Below, piece by piece: positions 5,222 through 54,912 of a stretch of 64,000 nt of DNA; positions within the stretch are counted from its first letter, which is position 1, and every line of letters begins with the position of its first letter. The notes under the pieces are model-generated. The model was not told the origin of the DNA, did no database searches, and saw only the letters and a list, made by a program, of their open reading frames with translations. Origin of the DNA: Halolamina salifodinae (lineage in GTDB: Archaea > Halobacteriota > Halobacteria > Halobacteriales > Haloferacaceae); assembly GCF_017874235.1 (NCBI RefSeq), contig NZ_JAGGLC010000006.1, positions 62,001-126,000 on the forward strand. The letters run 5' to 3'. Position numbers and translations under genes: made by a program.

Positions 5222-6370
5222 CTACTCTTCGCCCAGAATATCGTTCGCCTCCTCCTCCCCATCGCCCTGCCCCATCGCCGACTCCACGAGCAGATGGCCG
5301 CCGATGACGGCCGGGCTGATCACGGTGTCGGCGCCGGCGCGTTTGAGTTTACTCACGTTCTCGCGCTGGCTCACCCCGGCGGCGATGTGGAGGTCGGGGT
5401 TGAGTTCCCGCGCGGTCAGGATCGCCAGCGCGTCGTTGGCGTCGTTCTGCGTCGCGGCGATGGCGGCCCGCGCCCGCTCGATACCCGCACTGCGCAGGGG
5501 TGCCTCGTCGCTGGGGTCGGCGGTCAGCACGTGCACGTCGCGGGTCGCCAGTCGCCGCGTCGTCGTCTCGTCGTCGGTGATGACGACGAACTCCGCCTGG
5601 GACTCCAGTTCTTCGAGGATCGGTTCGGTCAGGTCGCCGTAGCCCAGAACCAACACGTGGTTCTCGAGCGTGTCGAGTTGTTGTTCTGTCATGCGTCCGA
5701 ATGCGGCCGAGAGTCGGGCTTCGATCATCGGCGTCAGCACCACCCCGAGCGCGACGGCGAAGGAGGACACCGAGAGCACCACCACCGACATGGCGAACAG
5801 CCGTGCCTGCTGGCTCTGGGCGTAGACGTCGCCGTAGCCGACGGTGCTGCCGGTGACCAGCGTGTAGTAGAACGCGTCGGTCAGGGTGTGCAGGCCGTTG
5901 AACTCGTCGCGCAGCGCGTAGGCACCCGCGGTGCCGTACACCTGCGCGGCCACGAGCGACGCGACGGCCGCGACCTGCGTCGTCGAGACGTCCAGTTCCG
6001 CGTCGAACGTCCGGCGGTTGAGCGTCACCACGAGCAGCGCCAGCAACGACAGCGCCACCAGCGGCACGGAGTAGTTGGTGGCCTGCAACAGCCCCTGGGC
6101 GGCGGTCAGGGGGAGCATCACTACCGTCAGGAGCCAGCCTGCCCGGTAGCGCCGCCGGAGCAGGAGTGCCGCGATCATCGTCAGAAAGCCCGTCAGCGTC
6201 CCCGTGAAGCCGACCGTCCGGCGGACAATCGGGGGAACGAACTCAGACAGCGGCCCGGCGGCCGTCATCGTCGAGATGTTGACGATACCCGTCCCCACGG
6301 AGAGCGCGGCGACGGCGAACGTCAGGATGATCGAGGCGCGTACCCCCACCCAGTCCCGGTCCAGCTGCAT
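5222..6370 (-). CDS. RCK-domain potassium channel (Kch/MthK-like with NAD-binding TrkA-N domain)
   Basis: A 382-residue membrane protein. The first 170 residues contain several hydrophobic helices and end in a pore loop with the K+ selectivity signature TVGYGD (about residue 183), followed by the inner helix. Residues about 240-360 form a TrkA-N/RCK Rossmann domain beginning HVLVLGYGDLTEPI. The channel conducts K+ across the membrane and is gated by nucleotide or ligand binding at the RCK domain. It is divergent from two TrkA-C membrane proteins starting at 6465, so all three probably serve K+ homeostasis, which is central for salt-in halophiles. Confidence 0.88.
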   Translation of the reverse strand: MQLDRDWVGVRASIILTFAVAALSVGTGIVNISTMTAAGPLSEFVPPIVRRTVGFTGTLTGFLTMIAALLLRRRYRAGWLLTVVMLPLTAAQGLLQATNYSVPLVALSLLALLVVTLNRRTFDAELDVSTTQVAAVASLVAAQVYGTAGAYALRDEFNGLHTLTDAFYYTLVTGSTVGYGDVYAQSQQARLFAMSVVVLSVSSFAVALGVVLTPMIEARLSAAFGRMTEQQLDTLENHVLVLGYGDLTEPILEELESQAEFVVITDDETTTRRLATRDVHVLTADPSDEAPLRSAGIERARAAIAATQNDANDALAILTARELNPDLHIAAGVSQRENVSKLKRAGADTVISPAVIGGHLLVESAMGQGDGEEEANDILGEE

Positions 6371-6464
6371 ACGCGACGACAGACGGAGGGTGGGCTTAAA
6401 AGGGCCAGCAGTCCCGGCCGCCGTCGCCGGTACGCCTATGTCGTCGCCGGCGGTTCGCCCGTGT

Positions 6465-7676
6465 ATGACTCCGCTCCCGCTCCAGATCCTGCTCGGCGTC
6501 TATCTCGGGCTGGTGACGGGGATCGTTCCGGCCTTGGTCGCGTGGGGGCTGGGGTTCCTGTTCAAGTACCTGACCAACGTCACCATCCCCGGGTTCGGGG
6601 TGGTCGTGCTGGCGCTGGCCATCGCGGGCGTCAACGGCGGCCTGCTGGCGCTCAACGACAAGGCGATCACGGGCAGCGCCAACGGCGTCGCCATCCTCGT
6701 GGCCATCGTCGTCGTGCTGATGCTCTCGCTGTACGCCCACGCGAAGGGCGACCAGATGGGCGCGGCGACGCCCAAACGGCTCACGCTGCGAAAGCTCGCG
6801 GACCGAACCCTCTCGGCGGACGTGGTCGAACTGGTCGGGAGCCGCGGCCAGGTGAAGCTGAAGATCACCGGCGACGTGGGCGACATGGAGGGCTCGCCGC
6901 CGCTGCCGGCCGAACTCCGCACCGCGATCCGCGAGGCGCATCTCGCGCTCCCCGCGGACCTCCCGCTCTCGGAGCTCGAGCGCCGCGCCGAGGACCAACT
7001 CCGCACTGGGTTCGACCTCGCGGACGTCTCGGTCCGGATCGACGAACGCGGCCACGCGACCGTTGCCGCGGCGCCGCCCAGCGCCGGCCTCTCGAAGCGC
7101 GTCCCCACCGGGAAGCGCGCAGTGTCGCTGACGACGATGGTCCCCACGGGTCTCGCTGCTGGCGACGAAGTGCGCATCCGGACGGCGACGACGAGCTATG
7201 AGGGGACCGTCGTGAGCGTCACGCCGCCCGCGGAGAAGGCCGCGAAGCCGACAGTGACCGACGGCGGTACCGACGTCCCGGCGTCGACGCCGACGGCAAA
7301 GACTGCGGCAGGGGGCCCCAGCCGCGTCAGCGTCGCCGTGACCCGCGAGACCGCGCGGGCGCTCGTCGGCACAGAGGTAACCGGGCTCTCGGTCCGCTCC
7401 CGTGGCGAGCGCCAGGAGTTCGAGCTACTGGCCCTGCTGCGGCGCTCGGGCAAACGGCTCCGCCGGGTCACCGTCCGCGACGACGGGCCGCTCGACGGCG
7501 CCAGCATCGGTGAAGTCGGCATCCACTCGACGTACGGCGTCGTCGTACTCGCCGCTCGTGGCTCCTCGGGCTGGGTGCTCGCGCCCGGCAGCGAGTACGT
7601 CGCCGAGCCGGGCCAGGAGCTGTTCGTCGTCGGCACGCCCGGCGATCTCGACGCGTTCGCGGAGGTGGCGGCGTGA
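6465..7676 (+). CDS. TrkA-C domain membrane protein (first of an overlapping pair)
   Basis: The ATG at 6465 gives 403 residues. The N terminus has three hydrophobic helices (about residues 5-30, 43-65 and 75-95). A soluble region follows, with a VPTGxxAGDEVRIRT barrel-like segment and a final TrkA-C (RCK-C) domain at about residues 315-400. An upstream extension of the frame to 6204 would overlap the divergent channel gene and is rejected. TrkA-C domains bind regulatory ligands of K+ transporters and channels. The stop overlaps the GTG of the next gene by 4 bp, so the two are translationally coupled. Confidence 0.82.
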   Translation: MTPLPLQILLGVYLGLVTGIVPALVAWGLGFLFKYLTNVTIPGFGVVVLALAIAGVNGGLLALNDKAITGSANGVAILVAIVVVLMLSLYAHAKGDQMGAATPKRLTLRKLADRTLSADVVELVGSRGQVKLKITGDVGDMEGSPPLPAELRTAIREAHLALPADLPLSELERRAEDQLRTGFDLADVSVRIDERGHATVAAAPPSAGLSKRVPTGKRAVSLTTMVPTGLAAGDEVRIRTATTSYEGTVVSVTPPAEKAAKPTVTDGGTDVPASTPTAKTAAGGPSRVSVAVTRETARALVGTEVTGLSVRSRGERQEFELLALLRRSGKRLRRVTVRDDGPLDGASIGEVGIHSTYGVVVLAARGSSGWVLAPGSEYVAEPGQELFVVGTPGDLDAFAEVAA

Positions 7677-8896
7677 TCCTCCAGTCGCTGCTCGCGCCCG
7701 CGGAGCTGCTGCCGTCGCTGGGGCGCCTGCTCTGGCTCTCGGCGCTCTCCTTCGTGGTCTCGCTGTCGCTCTCCGCGCTCTACCGCTGGTACTTCCGGGA
7801 GCCGATCCCGCGGGGGCTGGCGGCGCTGTTCGGCGTCGCCGCCGTCGCGCTCTACCTCAACACGGTGGGGCTGCTGGGCCGGGTCATCGGCGCGCCCGGG
7901 GCGGACCCGTTCGACGCGACCGGCGTCGGCACCGAACTGCTGACGCTGTTCGCGGCGTTCGTCGCGACGGTCCTGGGCCGCCGGGTCGGCAACGCGCTCC
8001 GCGGGGAGATCGCCGCCGCCGCGGGCGCTCACGAGGTCAACGCCGGCGTGGGAAGCGTGCTCCGCCGGGCGGTCCGGCTCTCGGCGGTCGAACTCCCCGA
8101 CGCCGAGGCCATCGCGGACATGCCCAGCCACGACCCCGTTCCCGCGGAGACGAAGGCGGAACTCGGCGGGAAGACGCTGCTGTTCCCGCGGTCGAACACC
8201 ACGACGCTGCGCGAGCGCCTGACCACCCGGCTGAAGGAGGACTACAACGTCGGCTACGTCGACGTGGAACTCGACAAGGACGGCACAGTCACGTATCTCG
8301 CGCTGGGCTCCCGGCTGGCGGGCATCGGCCCGACGCTTGGGCCCGGCACCTGCGCCGTCGCCGTCGAGGCCGACCCGGCGACTGACGCGGGCCCAGGCGA
8401 CGTGGTGCAGGTGTGGACGGTCCCCGAGCACACTGCGCCGGCCGAGATGACGGTTCCGGAGGCCGAGACGCCGGACCCCGGGGCGGCCGTCCCCGAGGCG
8501 GAGGCGACGCCGCGCCGGGTAACGACCGCCGAGATCCGCGCGACGGCGGGCGAGACGGTCACGCTCGTCGTCGACGAGAACGACGCCGAGGCGCTCTCGC
8601 CGGACCGGCGCTACCGGCTGGTGACGCTGCCAGTCGACGCCGGCGCCGACCGGGAGTTCGCCTCGCTGCTGCGCGCGGCCGACGAGACGCTGGGCGTGGT
8701 GAAACTTTCCGAGGGGAGCCCGGTGGCCGGCGTCGCCGTCGGCGACCTCGACGCGACGGTCGTGGCGGTCCGGAACGGGGCCGGCGCGCTCGACGCGCTG
8801 CCCGACCGTGAGCGCGCGCTCGCGGCCGGGGATCGGGTGTACGCCATCGGCCGCCCCGACGTGCTGCGGTCGCTGGAGGAGCGGGTGGCCGCCTGA
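7673..8896 (+). CDS. TrkA-C domain membrane protein (second of an overlapping pair)
   Basis: The GTG at 7673 overlaps the stop of the preceding gene (GTGA), giving 407 residues. Hydrophobic helices lie at about residues 15-35, 45-65 and 85-105. The soluble part contains NTTTLRERLTTRLKEDYNVG and a C-terminal RCK-C-like domain ending in a YAIGRPDVLRSLEERV helix. The architecture parallels the first gene without strong sequence similarity, so the two may form a hetero-oligomer. The role in K+ regulation is inferred from domain and neighbourhood. Confidence 0.8.
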   Translation: MILQSLLAPAELLPSLGRLLWLSALSFVVSLSLSALYRWYFREPIPRGLAALFGVAAVALYLNTVGLLGRVIGAPGADPFDATGVGTELLTLFAAFVATVLGRRVGNALRGEIAAAAGAHEVNAGVGSVLRRAVRLSAVELPDAEAIADMPSHDPVPAETKAELGGKTLLFPRSNTTTLRERLTTRLKEDYNVGYVDVELDKDGTVTYLALGSRLAGIGPTLGPGTCAVAVEADPATDAGPGDVVQVWTVPEHTAPAEMTVPEAETPDPGAAVPEAEATPRRVTTAEIRATAGETVTLVVDENDAEALSPDRRYRLVTLPVDAGADREFASLLRAADETLGVVKLSEGSPVAGVAVGDLDATVVAVRNGAGALDALPDRERALAAGDRVYAIGRPDVLRSLEERVAA

Positions 8897-10912: not shown

Positions 10913-13900
10913 TTAGGGGGCAGTCCCCGAAATCTGTACGTCATTCGGGAGACTGTTTCCGTTCCCGTCATTGATGTCGTTGTTGTTGCTGTCGATGGAC
11001 ACAATGACTTCTTCGTCCGAATTGATGGTGTAGGTATCCATCGTGATAGTGTAGGTCGGGTCGGCGCTGTTAACGGTCCCGATAGTCCTATCTGTGCCTC
11101 CGACGCTCACATTGAAGTCGGTCGCATCAACGTTATTGACCGACTCGCTGAACGTCACATCAACTGAGTCAGACCCAGTGTTGATGGTGACGCTCTGAAT
11201 CACCGGAGCAGCACTATCACTGACGATTGCATCGCCAGATTTGATGGTCACATCAGCGAGTTCGTTACCCGCGATGTCAGCGGTCGCACCACTACTGCCC
11301 GATGCGTAGACGACATCGACAGGAGCACTGCCGATACCGTCATCAGCCGTAGCATCACTGCTGGTGTCGATGGACACCTCAATGGTGTTGTCGTCAGCAG
11401 TGGTGCCGGTGGCCTTCGTAGTAGCGGTCGTGCCGCCGATGGTGTAGTCACCGGGTTCGACGGTCGAATCGTCGATCGATTCGGAGAACGTCAGGACCGC
11501 CGTGTCGATGTTCCCGTCACCATCGCTGTCCTGCTGGTCAACGCCAGTGCTTGTCGGCGCATTGTCGTCGACGGTCAGCGTCGCGATCTTGTCGTCCTGA
11601 ACGCTCGCCCCTTTGCTGGGGACGATCTTCGCACCGACAGTGTAGTCGCCGATAGCGGACGGGTAGTCAAGGGTTAGGCTGCTCACCTCGACTCTCACAC
11701 TCTCTTTCTGCGCGGAGAACGACAGTTCGACTGTGTCGTAGACATTGTCCCCGTCATCGCCGAGTACGAGATTGCTACTGTAGTCGACGTTGTCACCGTC
11801 CACGACGTCGACTGTACCAACGCGGGAGTTCTGACTCGTCTGACTGTTCACAACCTTGTCGGGGAGGTTGATGTAGACCGTGTCGGTGTTACCGTCGTCC
11901 CATTCGGTGTTCGGACTGACGTCGAACTTGATAACCTGACTGTCGGTAGACGTACTCGGCTGAACTGCCGCCGGGTCCACCATCGGGTTACTGAACGTGC
12001 TTGTGCTACCTACGCTCTCAACCTTCAGCGAATCGGAAACACTACTAACGCTGTCTTCAGCGTTGTTGGTGTCCACAGCGTTGTCGATGGTCGCCGTGTA
12101 CGTGTTACCTCCCGTTGTGGTCGTACTCGTGACTAGCGTGTACGTGTACGGACCCGATCCACTTTCGGTGAATTCGCCTTCAGCAGCACCGATCGTGTCG
12201 TAGGTACCACCCAGGTTGTTACTTCCGGTGACCTTGAGCGTGCTAAGCTTCTCGTTCGAAGTAACCGTCAGGACGACATTATCGCTACTGTTTTTCGACA
12301 CTGAGATGTCGGTATTCAGCGGCGTAGCGTCGTAGTTGACGGTATCGGAGCCGTATTCGACGTTACCACTCGCATCGATGACGGTGACATCCACGTCGGT
12401 CTGGCCTTCGTCAGCTGTCGCCGTCGCAGCGTCGATGGTGAAGGTTCCGACGTAAACGCCAGCGGCGTTTTTCTTCAGCGGAACTTCACTCGGACCGCCG
12501 AGTGCAGATCCGTCCGCGTAGACTTTCGAGACACCGGAATCGTCAGTTGCATCGACTTTCACTTTGACGGTGTTTCCGTCAACGACGAGTTCGTCGGTCG
12601 CATCGCCATTCTCGTAGGCGTTGGTGCTAACGATTGTCGGCTGCCCGCTCTGCAGGCCCGTGTAGTCGACGGGTGCGAGCATGCCACTGTCGTCGTTCGT
12701 GAAGAGCCAGTAACCCTCGCCGGGTTCCAGCACCTGCACGTTCTGACCAGTGTAGCCCTTCTCGACGCCCCAGTCAGCACTGCTCGGGAGCGTGGACATC
12801 GCCTGGTCGACGGACTGGTCACCTTCCTGGAACGCACCTACCAGGTTCCAGCCGTTGTTCAGCGATTCGCTGTTAATAGCGACTGCTTCCTCGTCGGACG
12901 GCACGTTCTCGACTTCAACGTCGACGGAACCGCTGGAGTTGGCCTTGACGATGTAACCGACACCGCCGACCATCTCCTGCAGGTCACCGTCGCCGGTCTG
13001 GACGTTGTAGGACATCCAGCCGTCGTCGTAGGTCATCACCGAGTCGACCTCGTCACCGAACTCGACGTCGTCCAGCGCGACCGAGCCAGTCTCGGCCGGG
13101 ATGGAGACGACATTGAGGTCTTCGGTGTAGCTGAGTTCGAACGTGACATCAGCACCGGTCGTTGCGGTGGACGAGCTGTCACCGAACTGCTCGGTGACAG
13201 TCGTCGCGTTCAGCATCGCGTCGCCGCCGGTCTGCACTTCGTCCGAAACGGTGACGTTCACGATGCCGTCGCCGTCCGTTGCGGAAGCGTCAGCCACGGA
13301 GACGCCCGCACCGTTGAACTGCTTGTCGAACGTCGCCGCGCTGATCGGCTCGCTGAAGGTCAGTCGAACATCGATCTGACCTTCGCTACCACCGACGATA
13401 TCGGCGTCAACGAGATGCGAATCCTCGGTGTCCACGGTGGTCATGTCGGTTCCGCCCTCGACGCCAGCGGCTGCCTCGTTGTCGGCGTCAACGGCGTCGT
13501 GGACGGTCAGCTTGTACTGGCCGTCGTAGTCGGCCTCAACAGTCGTCGTGTATCGGACATCACCGTTGCTCTTCGTCGTTGCAGTGAAGTCGTCAATCGT
13601 GACGTTGGTGGTGCTGTCCTCTGCGTAGTGGACGTTCGTCACGCCCACGTCGAGCGTCGAGAGTGCCTCGTCGGACACGATGACGACCTGCATCTCGCCG
13701 TCAGCGTTGGCGTTCTCGAGGTGGACACTGTCCGAAGCCGGGTCAGCACCACTCTGGTACGTAACTGACGGGACGTTGTCGACCTCGGCAGTCTGGGTAG
13801 CCATTACGGAGCTACCGTCGTCCTTGGTGATCGTCAGCTTGGCCTTAATTAGGCCGTCCTCCAGCGTGCTCGTGTTGAGCGTGTGATCGGCCAGTTCGGT

Positions 13901-50280: not shown

Positions 50281-50322
50281 CCCACCGAACCGCTTAACCC
50301 CGGCAACGGCCTATCCTGAATT

Positions 50323-50712
50323 GGCAGAGAGAGCCCGGTTCCCGCGCCCCAGCCCGCGAGCAAGGGGCGTGAGGAAAGTCCCCCCACCGTCCGGACGGGC
50401 GACCGGGCGCAAGCCCGGAGTCGGAGACGGCTGGCTCTGGAACAGAAACGAGACCGCTCGTCCTGACCCATGACGTGTGCGAACCGACCCGTAAGGGAAG
50501 GGAGCTAACCCACGGAGGGCGCGTGGCGCGCAGCGCCACGAACTGGGCGAACGGCGAGAGCCGTGAGCCGACGGACGAGAACGGATGGAACGGCGAACCC
50601 TCGCCGGTGCAAGCCCGTGCCCGAAGGTAGTCCGGACAGCCGGCAACGGCAGGGCGCGGGTGCTTAGCGGAATGCCGGGTCGAAACAGAAGGGGGCTTAC
50701 TCCTCTCGGCCG
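50323..50712 (+). ncRNA. rnpB: RNase P RNA (archaeal type A)
   Basis: The universal conserved regions are visible: GAGGAAAGTCCCCCC near the 5' end (CR I), GGTGCAAGCCCGTGCCCGAA in the middle and ACAGAAGGGGGCTTACTCCTC at the 3' end (CR V). The ends GGCAGAGAG and CTCTCGGCC pair as helix P1. Other stem-loops include GTGGCGC-GCA-GCGCCAC. The length of about 390 nt fits euryarchaeal type A. It is the catalytic part of the enzyme that trims tRNA 5' leaders, so it lacks a protein reading frame. Transcribed rightward after pncB. Confidence 0.93.
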
Positions 50713-50881
50713 CTCACACTCATCAGCGACGGCGTTCGCCGGAACGTCTTTTTGACCACGCCTCGTCCCCGAACACGGATGCGCCTCACCCGTCGGTCCG
50801 TGTTCGCCGCCTCCTCGGCCGTCTCCGCGGACGGCGATCGCTCCGTCGTCGCCGCCCACCGACAGCACGGACGAGGTGACG

Positions 50882-51205
50882 ATGGCTGAGGACCACCGCC
50901 CCACCGCCCCCGACTTCGACTCGGAGACGCTGGCTGATGCGCTCACCCGATTCGGCGGGAAGCCGGCCGAGCGCCGGACAGTCGCCCGCCAAGCCGTCGA
51001 TCTGGCGGATTCGGGCGAGTACCACCGGGACAGCGGTCGGCGGCTGACGGTCGACCTGATCGTCGACGAACTCGCCGACGCCCCCGAGGGCTCGCCGGCA
51101 GAGCGCTGGAACTGGTGGATGGGCGTGCTCTCCTTTGCCTACGGCGGCTACGACCAGTTCGTCGTGCGGCGCTACCCCGGGTCGTCGGTCGATTCGGGGG
51201 AGTAA
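50882..51205 (+). CDS. conserved small acidic protein
   Basis: From ATG 50882, 107 residues; a GTG two codons upstream is possible. It is soluble and helical, with LADALTRFGGKPAERRTVAR and LTVDLIVDELADAPEG, and a Trp-rich RWNWWMGVLSFAYGGYDQFV near residue 80. The family is not recognised with certainty. Originally it probably preceded the beta-CASP nuclease gene, whose orphan 5' end lies 72 bp downstream. Confidence 0.65.
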   Translation: MAEDHRPTAPDFDSETLADALTRFGGKPAERRTVARQAVDLADSGEYHRDSGRRLTVDLIVDELADAPEGSPAERWNWWMGVLSFAYGGYDQFVVRRYPGSSVDSGE

Positions 51206-51276
51206 GCCGCGAGGACCGGCCCCGAGACGACCGGGAACCGACGAACGGAAACCCCGGGACCGCCGAAACCACACGA

Positions 51277-51498
51277 ATGCAGCTACGCTTCCTCGGCGGC
51301 GCCGGCGAGGTCGGCCGCAGTGCCGTCCTCGTCGACGACTCCCTGCTGCTCGACTTCGGCCTGCTGACCGCCGAGCCCCCGCAGTACCCCGTCGGGACGC
51401 CCGACCCCGATGCTGTCGTCGTCTCCCACGGCCACCTCGACCACGTGGGGACCGTCCCGGCGCTCCTCTCGGGCGCGGATACTCGACTTACCAACTGA
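51277..51498 (+). pseudogene. orphan 5' end of a beta-CASP/MBL exonuclease gene
   Basis: This frame starts MQLRFLGGAGEVGRSAVLVD and carries the metal motif VVVSHGHLDHVGTVPALLSG, then stops after 73 codons at TGA 51496-51498. It duplicates the first 67 residues of the intact gene at 53572. Codon choice is strongly GC-rich, like the neighbouring genome. The duplicate region ends at 51479, after a 53-bp block nearly identical to 53719-53771; sequence beyond that is AT-rich and unrelated. It probably represents the original gene start left behind when the cassette inserted. Confidence 0.8.
51427..51479 (+). repeat. 53-bp direct repeat, left copy, at cassette edge
   Basis: Begins CACGGCCACCTCGACCACGT and ends GGGCGCGGA. 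It matches 53719-53771 at 52 of 53 positions (G versus A near position 28). The repeat encodes the HGHLDHVG metal motif. Together the copies bracket the ATPase/pRiA4b cassette like attL and attR or homologous-recombination ends. Confidence 0.85.
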
Positions 51499-51503
51499 GA
51501 TAG

Positions 51504-51534
51504 CCAATTCTGAAATAGGCTATTTTGGAATTGG
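51504..51534 (+). promoter_or_regulatory. 31-bp imperfect AT-rich palindrome at the cassette edge
   Basis: Left arm CCAATTCTGAAATAG and right arm CTATTTTGGAATTGG pair at 13 of 15 positions around one central G. It lies 24 bp inside the left repeat and 42 bp upstream of the ATPase start, so it could be a regulator-binding site or a recombination site. A TTTATG element at 51547-51552, about 25 bp upstream of the ATPase start, could be its TATA box. Confidence 0.6.
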
Positions 51535-51575
51535 TTATTCGCTACGTTTATGCCAGTGTCCGGACAGCAGACAGT

Positions 51576-52958
51576 ATGGCCCGATTCGTCGACCGAGCAG
51601 CTGAGATCTCCCGGCTTCGAGGCTGCTACGGGTCGGACGAGGCTGACATGGTCGTTATCTTCGGTCGTCGGCGCCTCGGCAAGACCGAACTCGTCCGTGA
51701 GTCGCTGGCCGGCCGCGACGACGCCGTGCTGTACCAGGCGACCGAGACGACGCCGCAAGTACAGCTCGACGAGTTCGTCGACATCGCATCAGAGTCGTTC
51801 CCCGGCGTCGGCCGCATCAAACAGGAGTGGGAGTCGCTCCTCGGCTACCTCGCCGAGCAGGGCGCGGTCGTCGTACTGGACGAGTTCCCGTACCTGATCG
51901 ACGCGGACGAAAGTCTCCCGTCGGTCGTGCAGCGATTGTGGGACCAAGAGATACAGAACACGGCCGCGACGCTCGTGCTCGTCGGCTCGTCAATCAGCAT
52001 GATGGAGGAGGCAACGCTCCTCGGGAACAGCCCGCTGTACGGCCGGTTCTCCGAGAAGATCGACCTTCGACAGCTCGACTTCGACGCCGCGTGCGAGTTC
52101 TTCCCCGACTCGTACACACCCGAAGAGCAGGTGTTCGCGTGGGGCGTGTTCGGTGGAACGCCGTACTACCTCGACGGCGTCGACCTCGACCACGACTTGG
52201 GAACGGTCATCCAACAGTCGATCCTCTCCCAGCAGGGGTTCCTGCACAACGAGCCCGAGTACGTCCTCCGCACCGAACTCACCGAACCCAACCGGTACTT
52301 CGCCATCCTGAAAGCGATCGCCGCCGGGAACACGACCGCAAACGAGATCGCGGGGACAGTCGGCATCGACGGGAAGCAGATTTCGACGTACACGCAGAAG
52401 CTGGAACGGCTTCGACTGGTCGAACGCGAGGTCCCAGTCACTGAGGATAAGACGAAGTCACGCCGAGGCCGATACCGGATCCTCGACCCCCTGTTCCGGT
52501 TCTGGTACCGGTTCGTCTACGGCAGCGAAGACCGGTACGAGCGCCTCGGTGACGACACCTATGAGACCGTCATCGAATCCGGGATGGCCGACTTCGTGAG
52601 CCAGGGCTTCGAGACGCTCTGCCAGGACGCGCTCCCCGACCTGTATTCGGAGGAGACGTTCGTCGACATCGGCCGCTGGTGGTACAAGGAGCACGAGGTC
52701 GACATCGTCGGGTTGACCGACGGCGGAACGATGGTCGCGGGCGAGTGCAAGTTCACGTCGTCGCCGCTCGACTACAGCGCGTTCGCGTCGCTCGAAGAAC
52801 ACGCCGACGAGATTCGGTGGTCCGCCGATAGTGGTGAGGTGAAGCGGGAATACGCGCTCTTCGCTCGAAGCGGGTTCACACAGTCGGTCCGTGAAGCCGC
52901 CGCTGAACGTGACGACCTCCAGTTGTTCGACCTCGACCGGATCGTCGAGAGCGTCTGA
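51576..52958 (+). CDS. archaeal ATPase with C-terminal DUF234-type nuclease-like domain
   Basis: From ATG 51576, 460 residues. The N-terminal P-loop is VVIFGRRRLGKTELV, the Walker B site VVVLDEFPYLIDAD, and a sensor-like motif reads LVLVGSSISMMEE. Residues 270-330 form a winged helix (AIAAGNTTANEIAGTVGIDG). The C-terminal 130 residues contain VDIVGLTDGGTMVAGECKF, resembling the restriction-endonuclease-like DUF234 domain with the D-x(n)-ExK pattern. Such ATPases are common in mobile and defence-related archaeal loci; function is unknown. GC content is lower than the flanks. It lies in the inserted cassette. Confidence 0.87.
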   Translation: MARFVDRAAEISRLRGCYGSDEADMVVIFGRRRLGKTELVRESLAGRDDAVLYQATETTPQVQLDEFVDIASESFPGVGRIKQEWESLLGYLAEQGAVVVLDEFPYLIDADESLPSVVQRLWDQEIQNTAATLVLVGSSISMMEEATLLGNSPLYGRFSEKIDLRQLDFDAACEFFPDSYTPEEQVFAWGVFGGTPYYLDGVDLDHDLGTVIQQSILSQQGFLHNEPEYVLRTELTEPNRYFAILKAIAAGNTTANEIAGTVGIDGKQISTYTQKLERLRLVEREVPVTEDKTKSRRGRYRILDPLFRFWYRFVYGSEDRYERLGDDTYETVIESGMADFVSQGFETLCQDALPDLYSEETFVDIGRWWYKEHEVDIVGLTDGGTMVAGECKFTSSPLDYSAFASLEEHADEIRWSADSGEVKREYALFARSGFTQSVREAAAERDDLQLFDLDRIVESV

Positions 52959-53009
52959 ACACCGGCCAGTACCGGGGCAGACGATCACCGAACACAATCG
53001 GGAAGTGTG

Positions 53010-53468
53010 TCACCCATCAGCGGCGTACTGCTCGATGGCCTCGCCCCTGCCCTCGACTACTTCAGGGCCTCTCTCGGCCGGTTCGTCGACGATTTCCATG
53101 AGAATCGCGTAGAAGCGCCACTCGTCGCCGTAGTCGTACAGGTAACAGAGTCGGTCACGTTCGTCGAGTCCTAACTGTTCGACGATGTCGCTGACCCTCG
53201 TCTCGCCGGCATCGTACGTCTCCTCGTCGAACCCAATTGTTGCCCCACCCTGTGAATCTTCGAACCCCTGCGAACACTGGTACTTGACGTCGCTGTTCCA
53301 GTAGTCCTCATCGGTACCGACGAACCAGAGGTGCCCCTGGTCGAGCCCCATCGTCGCGTTGACCGTCGTCTGAAACTCGTCGAGTGTGCGGTCTGCTCCG
53401 ACGACTACGTCTCGCCAGAGGGATGTCGGATCTGGATCGAACTTGACGCGGAAGCGGTAGGCTGTCAT
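53010..53468 (-). CDS. plasmid pRiA4b ORF-3-like protein
   Basis: From ATG 53468, 152 residues. The N terminus YRFRVKFDPDPTSLWRDVVV, the DEFQTTVNATMGLDQGHLW motif and the YDYGDEWRFYAILMEI motif define the pRiA4b ORF-3-like family, found on plasmids and in mobile islands with unknown function. The gene is convergent with the ATPase and completes the cassette. Frames extending to 53552 overlap the leader of the beta-CASP gene and are rejected. Confidence 0.85.
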   Translation of the reverse strand: MTAYRFRVKFDPDPTSLWRDVVVGADRTLDEFQTTVNATMGLDQGHLWFVGTDEDYWNSDVKYQCSQGFEDSQGGATIGFDEETYDAGETRVSDIVEQLGLDERDRLCYLYDYGDEWRFYAILMEIVDEPAERGPEVVEGRGEAIEQYAADG

Positions 53469-53571
53469 CCTCGTTTTGTTCTCTCTCCACCGACGATTGT
53501 GAGCGTTCGGCTCCTGACCGAGGCGAGACGATTCGACGTTGTCAAACGGCATGAACGACTACCAGTCGGTA

Positions 53572-54912
53572 ATGGATCTTCGGTTTCTGGGCGGTGCGGG
53601 AGAAGTCGGCCGGAGCGCGATCCTCGTCAACGATCGTCTCCTGCTCGACTACGGGATGAAATCGGGGAATCCGCCGCAGTTCCCGGTCGACGCCGATCCC
53701 GAATCGGTCGTGGTGAGCCACGGCCACCTCGACCACGTGGGGACCATCCCGGCGCTCCTCTCGGGCGCGGACCGGCCGCCGATCCACTGGACGCCGCCGA
53801 CCCAGGAGCTGGCGCTCACGCTCGCACGGGACACGCTCAAACTCCACGGGCGCTCGCCACACTGCCCGTTCACCGAGAACGACGTGAAGCGCGTCACTGA
53901 GGTCTCTCAGACCCACGGCTACCGCGAGACGTTCGAAGCCGCAGGCTACGAGGTGACGTTCTTCCGGGCCGGCCACATTCCGGGGAGTGCGCACGTGCTG
54001 GTCGACGATGGTGACACTCGCTTGCTCTACACCGGCGACTTCCACGTCGACGAGGAGGCCGCCGCTGACCCGCCCGCGGGCTTCGACGCCGGCGAGCCAC
54101 CCGTCGGCCAGCGACTCGTCAAGGGGTCGATAGCCCGCCCCGACGCCGACGTAGTGTTGTGTGAGAGCACCTACTCCGACGTGGACCACGACCCGCGGGC
54201 CAGCGTCGAACACCGGTTCGCCCAGAGCGTGAAAACGACCCTCTGGGAGGGCGGCACCGTCGTCGTTCCCGCGTTCGCCATCGGTCGCACTCAGGAGATG
54301 CTCATGATCTGCGAGGCCCACGACATCCCCTGCTATGTCGACGGGATGGGGAAGGAGGTGACCGAGATGCTGCGGCGCCATCCCGAGTTCGTGCGCGACC
54401 CGGCCGCGCTCCGGCGCGCGAAGTCCCACGCGCGGTTCGTGACGGGTCGCGACGGCCAGCGCGAGACCGGAGGTCTCGCTGGCCGCACGGGACGGGCTGG
54501 GCCGTCCCGTGGACAGCGCAAGCGGATTACGGACCAGAAAGCCGCCATCATCACCACGAGCGGGATGCTCTCGGGTGGCCCCGCTATGACCTACATCCCC
54601 GAGATCCGGGCGAACCCGGTGAACAAGATCACCATGACCGGCTATCAGGTCGAGGGGACGCCCGGCCGAGATCTGCTGGAAACCGGGCGCGCCGAGATCG
54701 ACGGGCGCGTGATGCCCGTCAGCGCGCAGGTCGAGGCGTACGACTTCTCGGCCCACGCCGACCACGGCGGGATTCGGCGGTTCCTCGACTCCTACGACGA
54801 CGCCGAGGTTCTCGTGAACCACGGCGACCGCTGTGGCGCGTTCGCGGCGGAACTCCGCGCGGACGGCTACGACGCGTCGGCGCCCGAACTCGGCGCGACC
54901 TACTCGGTCTGA
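53572..54912 (+). CDS. beta-CASP/MBL-fold ribonuclease (RNase J/CPSF-like)
   Basis: From ATG 53572, 446 residues. The MBL motif SHGHLDHVG is near residue 53. Further motifs are HIPGSAHVLV, YTGDFHVDE, ESTYSDVDHD and a C-terminal SAHADHGG (beta-CASP motif). It cleaves or degrades RNA 5' to 3'. Codons 1-49 use AT-richer, atypical synonymous codons compared with the rest and with the orphan 5' end at 51277, so this N-terminal part came with the inserted cassette. Residues about 302-326 (RDGQRETGGLAGRTGRAGPS) are encoded by two palindromes. A start at 53551 is possible. It converges on the SRPBCC gene with 13-bp overlap. Confidence 0.87.
   Translation: MDLRFLGGAGEVGRSAILVNDRLLLDYGMKSGNPPQFPVDADPESVVVSHGHLDHVGTIPALLSGADRPPIHWTPPTQELALTLARDTLKLHGRSPHCPFTENDVKRVTEVSQTHGYRETFEAAGYEVTFFRAGHIPGSAHVLVDDGDTRLLYTGDFHVDEEAAADPPAGFDAGEPPVGQRLVKGSIARPDADVVLCESTYSDVDHDPRASVEHRFAQSVKTTLWEGGTVVVPAFAIGRTQEMLMICEAHDIPCYVDGMGKEVTEMLRRHPEFVRDPAALRRAKSHARFVTGRDGQRETGGLAGRTGRAGPSRGQRKRITDQKAAIITTSGMLSGGPAMTYIPEIRANPVNKITMTGYQVEGTPGRDLLETGRAEIDGRVMPVSAQVEAYDFSAHADHGGIRRFLDSYDDAEVLVNHGDRCGAFAAELRADGYDASAPELGATYSV
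53719..53771 (+). repeat. 53-bp direct repeat, right copy, at cassette edge
   Basis: Near-identical partner of 51427-51479. Left of it the reading frame is the divergent N-terminal codon block; right of it the frame continues in native codon use through the rest of the nuclease. This is the likely crossover point that restored the gene. Confidence 0.85.
54461..54510 (+). repeat. two palindromes inside the beta-CASP nuclease gene
   Basis: GCGAGACC-GGA-GGTCTCGC at 54461-54479, extended by CGGCCA and TGGCCG farther out, then ACGGGACGG-GCTGGG-CCGTCCCGT at 54487-54510. In frame, encoding a Gly/Arg/Thr-rich insertion after HARFVTG. The first is the 3-nt-loop hairpin type. Confidence 0.83.

What the first reader, a model, noticed from the sequence alone, without database searches (positions are those of the whole stretch)
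51277..53771. Cassette that splits a nuclease gene and supplies a recoded 5' end
A native-codon 5' end (51277-51479) is orphaned. After it comes a 2.2-kb lower-GC cassette (ATPase with nuclease-like domain, pRiA4b protein). Then the intact gene begins with an N-terminal block that encodes a similar peptide in different codons, and returns to native sequence inside a 53-bp repeat that is 52/53 identical at both edges. This is the pattern of a gene-targeting element that restores its target. No integrase is seen, so the mechanism would be new or lost.
Basis: partly seen in the sequence, partly recalled or inferred. Interest (0 to 1): 0.78.

Follow-up and report, generated by a model that had tools for sequence, protein, structure and literature searches.

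The report
Insertion that splits and repairs gene
In a salt-loving archaeon a mobile nuclease gene has landed inside a conserved RNA-cutting gene together with a borrowed new front end for that gene, which left the old front end orphaned but the gene whole; a distant relative shows the same arrangement.

Summary
An orphan native 5' end (51277-51479) precedes a lower-GC insert, and the intact beta-CASP gene (53572-54912) starts with foreign codons that return to host sequence inside a 53-bp repeat (52/53). All six congeners held have one copy, with the orphan's type of 5' end. The insert is composite: a 1.48-kb ATPase/PD-(D/E)XK unit with a palindromic left end, then the upstream segment of a foreign beta-CASP gene (pRiA4b gene, promoter, about 49 codons). 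In 17 of 26 pairs of ATPase homologues at 90% identity or more, only this unit is shared. A genome of another family (G236, probably Halorussus) has the same anatomy around an 86%-identical ATPase, with other breakpoints (codon 61 left, about 12 right). A third genome has the unit just 3' of beta-CASP (3 of 66 unit-bearing genomes, 6 not checkable; 0.06 expected). Best reading: foreign DNA integrated by homologous recombination in conserved codons on the right and by a non-homologous join at the unit's end on the left. A fixed-site integrase element is unlikely here, although separate 40-kb integrase elements hit this gene elsewhere and bring a full spare copy. Mechanism inferred, not shown.

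The parts
50882..51205 (+). native upstream neighbour gene (107 aa), kept in congeners
   Evidence: no Pfam match
51277..51479 (+). orphaned native 5' end (codons 1-67) of the beta-CASP gene
51427..51479 (+). left copy of the 53-bp repeat, ends at the left junction
51480..51500 (+). left end of the ATPase unit; homology to L104 starts at 51486
51501..51537 (+). imperfect palindrome (operator-like), seen before ATPase genes of this family
   Evidence: dyad z>2 in 37 of 43 loci
51576..52958 (+). ATPase_2 + DUF234 protein; Walker A/B and PD-(D/E)XK-type residues invariant; PADLOC candidate family PDC-S27
52961..52996 (+). unassigned spacer between the ATPase unit and the donor-like segment
52997..53718 (+). 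donor-like segment: pRiA4b gene, promoter region and codons 1-49 of a foreign beta-CASP gene
53010..53468 (-). pRiA4b ORF-3-like gene (probable start 53468; open frame to 53552)
53572..54912 (+). intact chimeric beta-CASP gene: foreign to about codon 49, native from about codon 50
53719..53771 (+). right copy of the 53-bp repeat (HGHLDHVG codons), where the gene returns to host sequence

Best explanation
A foreign DNA segment made of a mobile ATPase-nuclease unit followed by the upstream region and 5' end of a foreign beta-CASP gene entered the host gene. On the right it joined by homologous recombination inside the conserved HGHLDHVG codons, so promoter and codons 1-49 became foreign while the frame stayed open. 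On the left the unit's end was joined without homology to host codon 67. Host codons 50-67 were duplicated and the old 5' end was orphaned. Only insertions that restore this conserved gene would survive, so restoration need not be programmed. Shown: the mosaic, the composite insert, the discreteness of the unit, and the parallel case. Inferred: one fragment, one event, order of steps, and why the unit's left end is the joint.
For: One N-terminal copy in 6 of 6 congeners. Site-by-site mosaic switching between nt 146 and 190. Insert = ATPase unit 51486-52960 plus donor-like 52997-53718. G236 has the same order with other breakpoints. ATPase unit shared alone in 17 of 26 pairs at 90% identity or more. 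Left flank repeated to the right of the unit in G236, G000 and L122. Other 5'-end exchange: G454 against congener G370, 84-86% in nt 0-100 and 96-100% in the later windows. Orphans with a donor-like gene 5' end and pRiA4b remnants but no ATPase in the stretch read, G374 and G434, suggest that such imports do not need the unit. Recombination with one homologous and one illegitimate end is known in bacteria (passages of PMC3240628, and PMC5361080).
Against: A random illegitimate end would not be expected at the unit's left end in two or three cases. Published HFIR generally deletes host DNA; here host DNA is duplicated. No genome seen has the unit upstream of pRiA4b and beta-CASP as donor. Two of six informative sites in nt 190-200 are donor-like in both copies, so the host origin of the repeat rests on four sites and the 52/53 identity. 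In G236 the gene's first 36 nt are non-native (25 of 36 against G063; orphan 33 of 36) but match G383 no better than 27 of 36, so its donor is not identified. Microhomology at the joint cannot be judged because the donor's left flank is unknown. I found no haloarchaeal HFIR in the 12 of 49 papers listed.
Confidence: 0.5

Rival explanations
1. The ATPase-nuclease unit is itself a homing-like element: its protein cuts conserved genes such as beta-CASP and the break is repaired by joining the unit at one side and copying a homologous 5' end at the other.
For: Unit is discrete and widespread; nuclease residues invariant in 24 sequences; next to beta-CASP in 3 genomes of 3 families among 66 with the unit, 0.064 expected, P about 4e-5 under a uniform model; junction at the unit's left end in G000 and G236, 20 bp apart in the gene.
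Against: 57 of the 60 checkable units sit elsewhere; no convincing flanking duplication in 39 of 42 loci; the G393 insertion is outside the gene; cut positions differ; no activity known.
Confidence: 0.22
2. Remnant of a site-specific integrase element that supplies a new 5' end, like SXT at prfC or the dusA islands, whose integrase has been lost.
For: Same end product as the dusA and prfC islands (passages of PMC8409611); integrase elements do use this gene in haloarchaea.
Against: No integrase match on contig C6; borders differ in G236; repeat mostly host-like in both copies; the att core known at this gene, GATGCTC, lies at TTSGML, codon 328 of the window gene.
Confidence: 0.12
3. Two steps: the unit first inserted in the 5' part of the gene in one chromosome copy, and later transfer of a foreign pRiA4b-beta-CASP segment repaired the gene.
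For: Insert is visibly made of two pieces with a 36-nt spacer; G393 shows the unit inserted without a 5'-end change near the gene.
Against: Must have happened in the same order in G000 and G236; needs a viable intermediate.
Confidence: 0.1
4. Single crossover of a circle carrying the foreign 5' end followed directly by the unit.
For: Gives orphan, cassette and chimeric gene in the right order.
Against: The orphan beyond the crossover should be donor type; it is native-like at sites 190, 191, 198 and 200, though donor-like at 195 and 199.
Confidence: 0.04
5. Old tandem paralogue that decayed.
For: Two 5' ends exist.
Against: Six of six congeners have one copy; the orphan is the native end and the gene's end is foreign.
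Confidence: 0.02

Closest known systems
Target-restoring integrative elements (IMEVchUSA3 in dusA; ICE SXT in prfC)
   Same: Insertion in the 5' end of a conserved gene; [quoted passage not shown]
   Different: No integrase, 2.2 kb only, right border varies, repeat looks like duplicated host sequence
Homology-facilitated illegitimate recombination (HFIR)
   Same: One homologous end, one non-homologous end; displaced remnants as proposed for Vibrio immunity gene arrays (passages of PMC5361080; PMC3240628)
   Different: Host sequence duplicated instead of deleted; joint lies at the end of a mobile unit; archaeon
PDC-S27 candidate single-gene defence family
   Same: ATPase matches PDLC04984 at 8.8e-40; PDC-S27 is enriched in archaea (passages of PMC12988326)
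   Different: Here seen as a discrete mobile unit inside a gene; defence activity untested
40-kb tyrosine-recombinase element of G069 and G222
   Same: Splits the same beta-CASP gene and brings a replacement
   Different: Integrase, 7-bp core GATGCTC with inverted arms, full gene copy, Dpd-like cargo

Membership tests
Target-restoring integrase element | Encodes a site-specific integrase | tested here: not met
   The two insert proteins scanned have no integrase domain; none of the 12 PF00589 matches of G000 lies on contig C6
Target-restoring integrase element | Inserts in a gene and supplies a new in-frame 5' end | tested here: met
   (sequence level; expression not tested)
Target-restoring integrase element | Fixed attachment core shared by relatives | tested here: not met
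   Borders at codons 67/50 in G000 and 61/12 in G236; two genomes only
Target-restoring integrase element | Excises as a circle | not testable with these tools
   needs reads or PCR
HFIR product | One end joined by homologous recombination | tested here: met
   mosaic switch in conserved codons
HFIR product | Other end joined without long homology | tested here: met
HFIR product | 3-10 bp microhomology at the joint | tested here: inconclusive
   donor left flank unknown
HFIR product | Host deletion of similar size, as generally seen | tested here: not met
   host codons 50-67 appear twice
PDC-S27 | Match to the family model | tested here: met
   8.8e-40
PDC-S27 | Antiviral activity | not testable with these tools
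   none
PD-(D/E)XK nuclease | E..D..ExK catalytic pattern (recalled) | tested here: met
   E346, D376, E390, K392 invariant in 24
PD-(D/E)XK nuclease | Nuclease fold | tested here: inconclusive
   model pLDDT 63; 2vld repair endonuclease at Foldseek E 1.6e-3, TMt 0.37
Classical insertion sequence | Transposase | tested here: not met
   only the ATPase gene in the unit, no transposase domain
Classical insertion sequence | Terminal inverted repeats and target duplication of fixed size | not tested
   palindrome at the left end; right end and exact ends not determined

The most novel reading that the evidence does not exclude
The ATPase-PD-(D/E)XK unit is a self-moving single-gene element without transposase or integrase: its nuclease opens conserved genes and its palindromic left end is joined to the break, while a homologous foreign 5' end repairs the target, a natural 'cleave and rescue'.
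Probability: 0.15. Interest if true: 0.85.

Novelty: new variant of a known kind. Interest (0 to 1): 0.6.

Why it matters
It shows foreign DNA breaking a conserved gene and mending it in the same stretch without an integrase, in two haloarchaeal families. It also exposes a 1.48-kb ATPase-nuclease gene, so far only a defence candidate, that behaves as a discrete mobile unit. How such solo units move is directly testable in laboratory haloarchaea.

Tried and rejected
Tandem paralogue: rejected by congeners. Circle integrating by one crossover: disfavoured by native-like sites in the orphan. General rule that ATPase units duplicate their targets: only G236, G000 and L122 of 42 loci are convincing (42 recounted); L123 (z 3.3) and L131 (z 2.8) do not abut the unit. 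In that test the flank of G000 was cut at its known junction, so its closeness to the unit there is by construction; G236 and L122 used the common cut. Coding repeat at L128 proved ambiguous: L130 matches the right copy only. Hotspot of cassettes upstream of the gene in congeners: the 3-6 kb extra DNA in four of six looks like ordinary genes. Foreign composition of the donors' own 5' ends: only a mild GC3 drop. Viral origin: no match of the ATPase or beta-CASP patterns in viral contigs (short peptide patterns, close relatives only). Plasmid origin of the beta-CASP gene: plasmid matches are all under 60% identity, while 21 plasmid records hold the ATPase at 60-90%. The structure model was weak and its best hits are ORC/Cdc6-type. 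Of the 49 loci, 10 bacterial, distant or partial ones were dropped; L153 was added from then on. In the adjacency count six of the 66 unit-bearing genomes could not be checked: the beta-CASP place of G160, G081, G235, G316 and G320 fell in a cut listing, and G281 had no N-terminal match; where the two lie on different contigs I counted them as apart. Nine of the 26 ATPase pairs at 90% or more share more than the unit; some are clearly one context.

Full report
WHAT IS THERE. The window belongs to contig C6 of a 2.75-Mb haloarchaeal genome. An ATG-started frame at 51277 encodes the first 67 codons of a beta-CASP nuclease and is then lost in unrelated sequence at 51480. The full gene (446 aa; Beta-Casp, RMMBL, Lactamase_B) starts at 53572. 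The last 53 bp of the orphan recur at 53719-53771 with one mismatch. Between lie an ATPase_2/DUF234 gene and, on the other strand, a PRiA4_ORF3 gene.

WHICH END IS NATIVE. The six genomes of the same genus have one N-terminal copy each. Their 5' ends align with the orphan, and in two of them (L037, L038) the region 50281-51473 is continuous with the gene, an empty site. Taking sites where at least 5 of 6 congeners agree against at least 5 of 6 donor-like genes, nt 6-146 of the window gene are donor-like at 28 of 31 sites (two native-like, one neither), while the orphan is native-like at 30 of 31. At the six such sites in nt 190-200 both copies read alike: native-like at four, donor-like at two. 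The switch therefore lies in nt 147-190, the HGHLDHVG codons, and codons 50-67, most likely of host origin, are present twice.

WHAT THE INSERT IS MADE OF. From 52997 to 53600 the sequence is 82% identical over 610 bp to the region upstream of beta-CASP in G383, and 78-87% to shorter parts in G307, G434, G475 and G374. In G383 and G307 a pRiA4b gene lies divergently just upstream of beta-CASP, as here. Identity of the window gene to G383, G307, G434 and G374 falls from 82-98% in the first 150 nt to 66-74% in nt 150-200 and is 67-82% beyond. The left part, 51486-52960, is the ATPase gene with its upstream palindrome. A scan of genome contigs gave 49 loci, of which 39 haloarchaeal ones were kept. 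Of 26 pairs at 90% identity or more, 17 share only a stretch starting 75-90 nt before the ATPase start and ending between 28 nt before and 39 nt after its end; nine share more on one or both sides. The palindromic region is conserved, with dyad z above 2 in 37 of 43 loci. None of the 39 loci has a beta-CASP match in the flanks held, up to 6 kb. So the ATPase gene with its palindrome moves as a discrete unit. Walker A and B residues and E346, D376, E390, K392 are invariant in 24 sequences including two bacterial ones, and the protein matches the candidate defence family PDC-S27. The closest copy in that scan is in Natrinema ejinorense (87%); one on a Haloterrigena turkmenica plasmid is at 87.6%.

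THE PARALLEL CASE. G236, in another family, has an orphan of 61 codons preceded by upstream sequence like that of its congener G063, then an ATPase 86% identical, then the intact gene. Orphan and gene agree at 141 of 147 sites in codons 13-61 but only 27 of 36 in codons 1-12. There the orphan matches G063 at 33 of 36 and the gene at 25 of 36, so the gene's first codons are not native; they match G383 at 27 of 36, so their source is not identified. The 50-65 nt around the start resemble the window's imported segment at 77%. pRiA4b is missing. Both left junctions fall at the unit's left end: in other pairs the unit's homology ends at 75-90 nt before the ATPase start, and the junctions are at about -96 (G000) and -92 (G236). 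A third genome, G393, has the unit just 3' of an intact beta-CASP gene where its congeners G455 and G346 have none. Among 66 of 392 order genomes with a close unit, 3 have it beside beta-CASP, 57 elsewhere and 6 could not be checked; 0.064 would be expected if units fell uniformly. In a focused test with the other loci as null, the 120 nt left of the unit recur on its right convincingly in 3 of 42 loci: G236 (z 13), G000 (z 7) and L122 of Natrinema hispanicum (z 5.9; a 40-nt repeat in front of a helicase-like gene, with a pRiA4b-like gene between). The repeats end 2-7 nt before the cut of the flank; for G000 that cut was placed at the known junction.

HOW OFTEN THE GENE IS HIT. With the first 70 aa as query, two copies were found in 2 of 167 genomes with a match in the window's family, 2 of 27 in the family of G236, 5 of 122 in that of G069 and 2 of 139 in that of G383, 11 of 455 together; in the order sample 10 of 378. 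Besides G000 and G236 these are of several kinds. In G069 and G222 a roughly 40-kb element, 94.6% identical over 33 kb between two families, splits the gene at the TTSGML codons, with a direct repeat GATGCTC flanked by inverted arms (GGAAACGAAGAT/ATCTTCGTTTCC in G069, one mismatch in G222), a PF00589 integrase near its left end, Dpd-like proteins (scanned in G069 only), and a complete divergent beta-CASP gene. N-fragments ending at or near the same codons occur in G117, G372 and G350, and in G475, whose N-terminal part is gone. G374 and G434 have orphans, donor-like gene 5' ends and pRiA4b remnants, with no ATPase found in the stretch read. G300 and G348 are unresolved. So this gene is a recurrent target of DNA that brings a spare, by at least two routes.

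MECHANISM. The right border differs between G000 and G236 and lies in conserved coding sequence, as homologous recombination would give; G454 against its congener G370 shows another 5'-end exchange. The left border has no long homology and lies at the unit's end. Such one-sided events are known as HFIR in three transformable bacteria and in E. coli conjugation (passages of PMC3240628) and were proposed for stepwise displacement with retained remnants in Vibrio (passages of PMC5361080). In Haloferax microhomology-mediated end joining is on record (abstract passage of PMC7521656). Duplication instead of deletion of host DNA would need a second chromosome copy as template, which polyploid haloarchaea have (recalled). 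What HFIR does not explain is why the unit's left end is the joint in both genomes; that leaves room for an active role of the unit.

COMPARISON AND NOVELTY. [quoted passage not shown] Archaeal att sites in protein genes are on record (passages of PMC8371274). The papers listed by searches (listings, mostly only the top of the papers found) showed nothing on such an event at a beta-CASP gene or on a mobile DUF234 unit. I call it a new variant of a known kind.

NAMES. By matching coordinates I infer G378 = Natrinema ejinorense (genus g34, that of G069, G307, G374, G434, G475), G366 = Haloterrigena turkmenica, G329 = Halorussus salinisoli (genus g44, that of G236 and G222), G191 = Halorubrum trapanicum and G091 = Haloferax elongans (the window's family), and G381 = Halapricum hydrolyticum (the family of G383 and G393; its family name Haloarculaceae is recalled).

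Noticed in passing
G069:C1:about 1036545-1078510 (L043-L045) and G222:C4 (L098-L100): About 40-kb integrase element of two haloarchaeal families inserted at the TTSGML codons of beta-CASP, with 7-bp core GATGCTC, inverted arms, Dpd-like cargo and a full spare beta-CASP gene.
   Followed up: partly
L104-L141, L147: ATPase_2/DUF234 gene with a palindromic upstream region behaves as a discrete 1.48-kb mobile unit; 17 of 26 close pairs share nothing beyond it.
   Followed up: partly
L160 (G393), about 6177-7789 on the reversed strand: Same unit inserted just after the stop codon of an intact beta-CASP gene; G455 and G346 show the site without it.
   Followed up: yes
L122:5874-5913 and 11178-11217: 40-nt repeat (90%) abutting the unit and recurring before a helicase-like gene, with a pRiA4b-like gene between: similar anatomy at another gene.
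   Followed up: partly
L128:5411-5756 and 7726-8081: 361-nt direct repeat (84%) across an ATPase unit in Natronococcus; L130 matches the right copy only.
   Followed up: partly
L096 (G454) against L094 (G370): Same-genus beta-CASP genes 96-100% identical except the first 100 nt (84-86%): another 5'-end exchange.
   Followed up: no
L102 (G348), L103 (G421), L087 (G300), L084 (G434), L085 (G374): Further broken or doubled beta-CASP copies: C-terminal remnants, an inverted orphan, two full copies, orphans of 94-161 codons.
   Followed up: no
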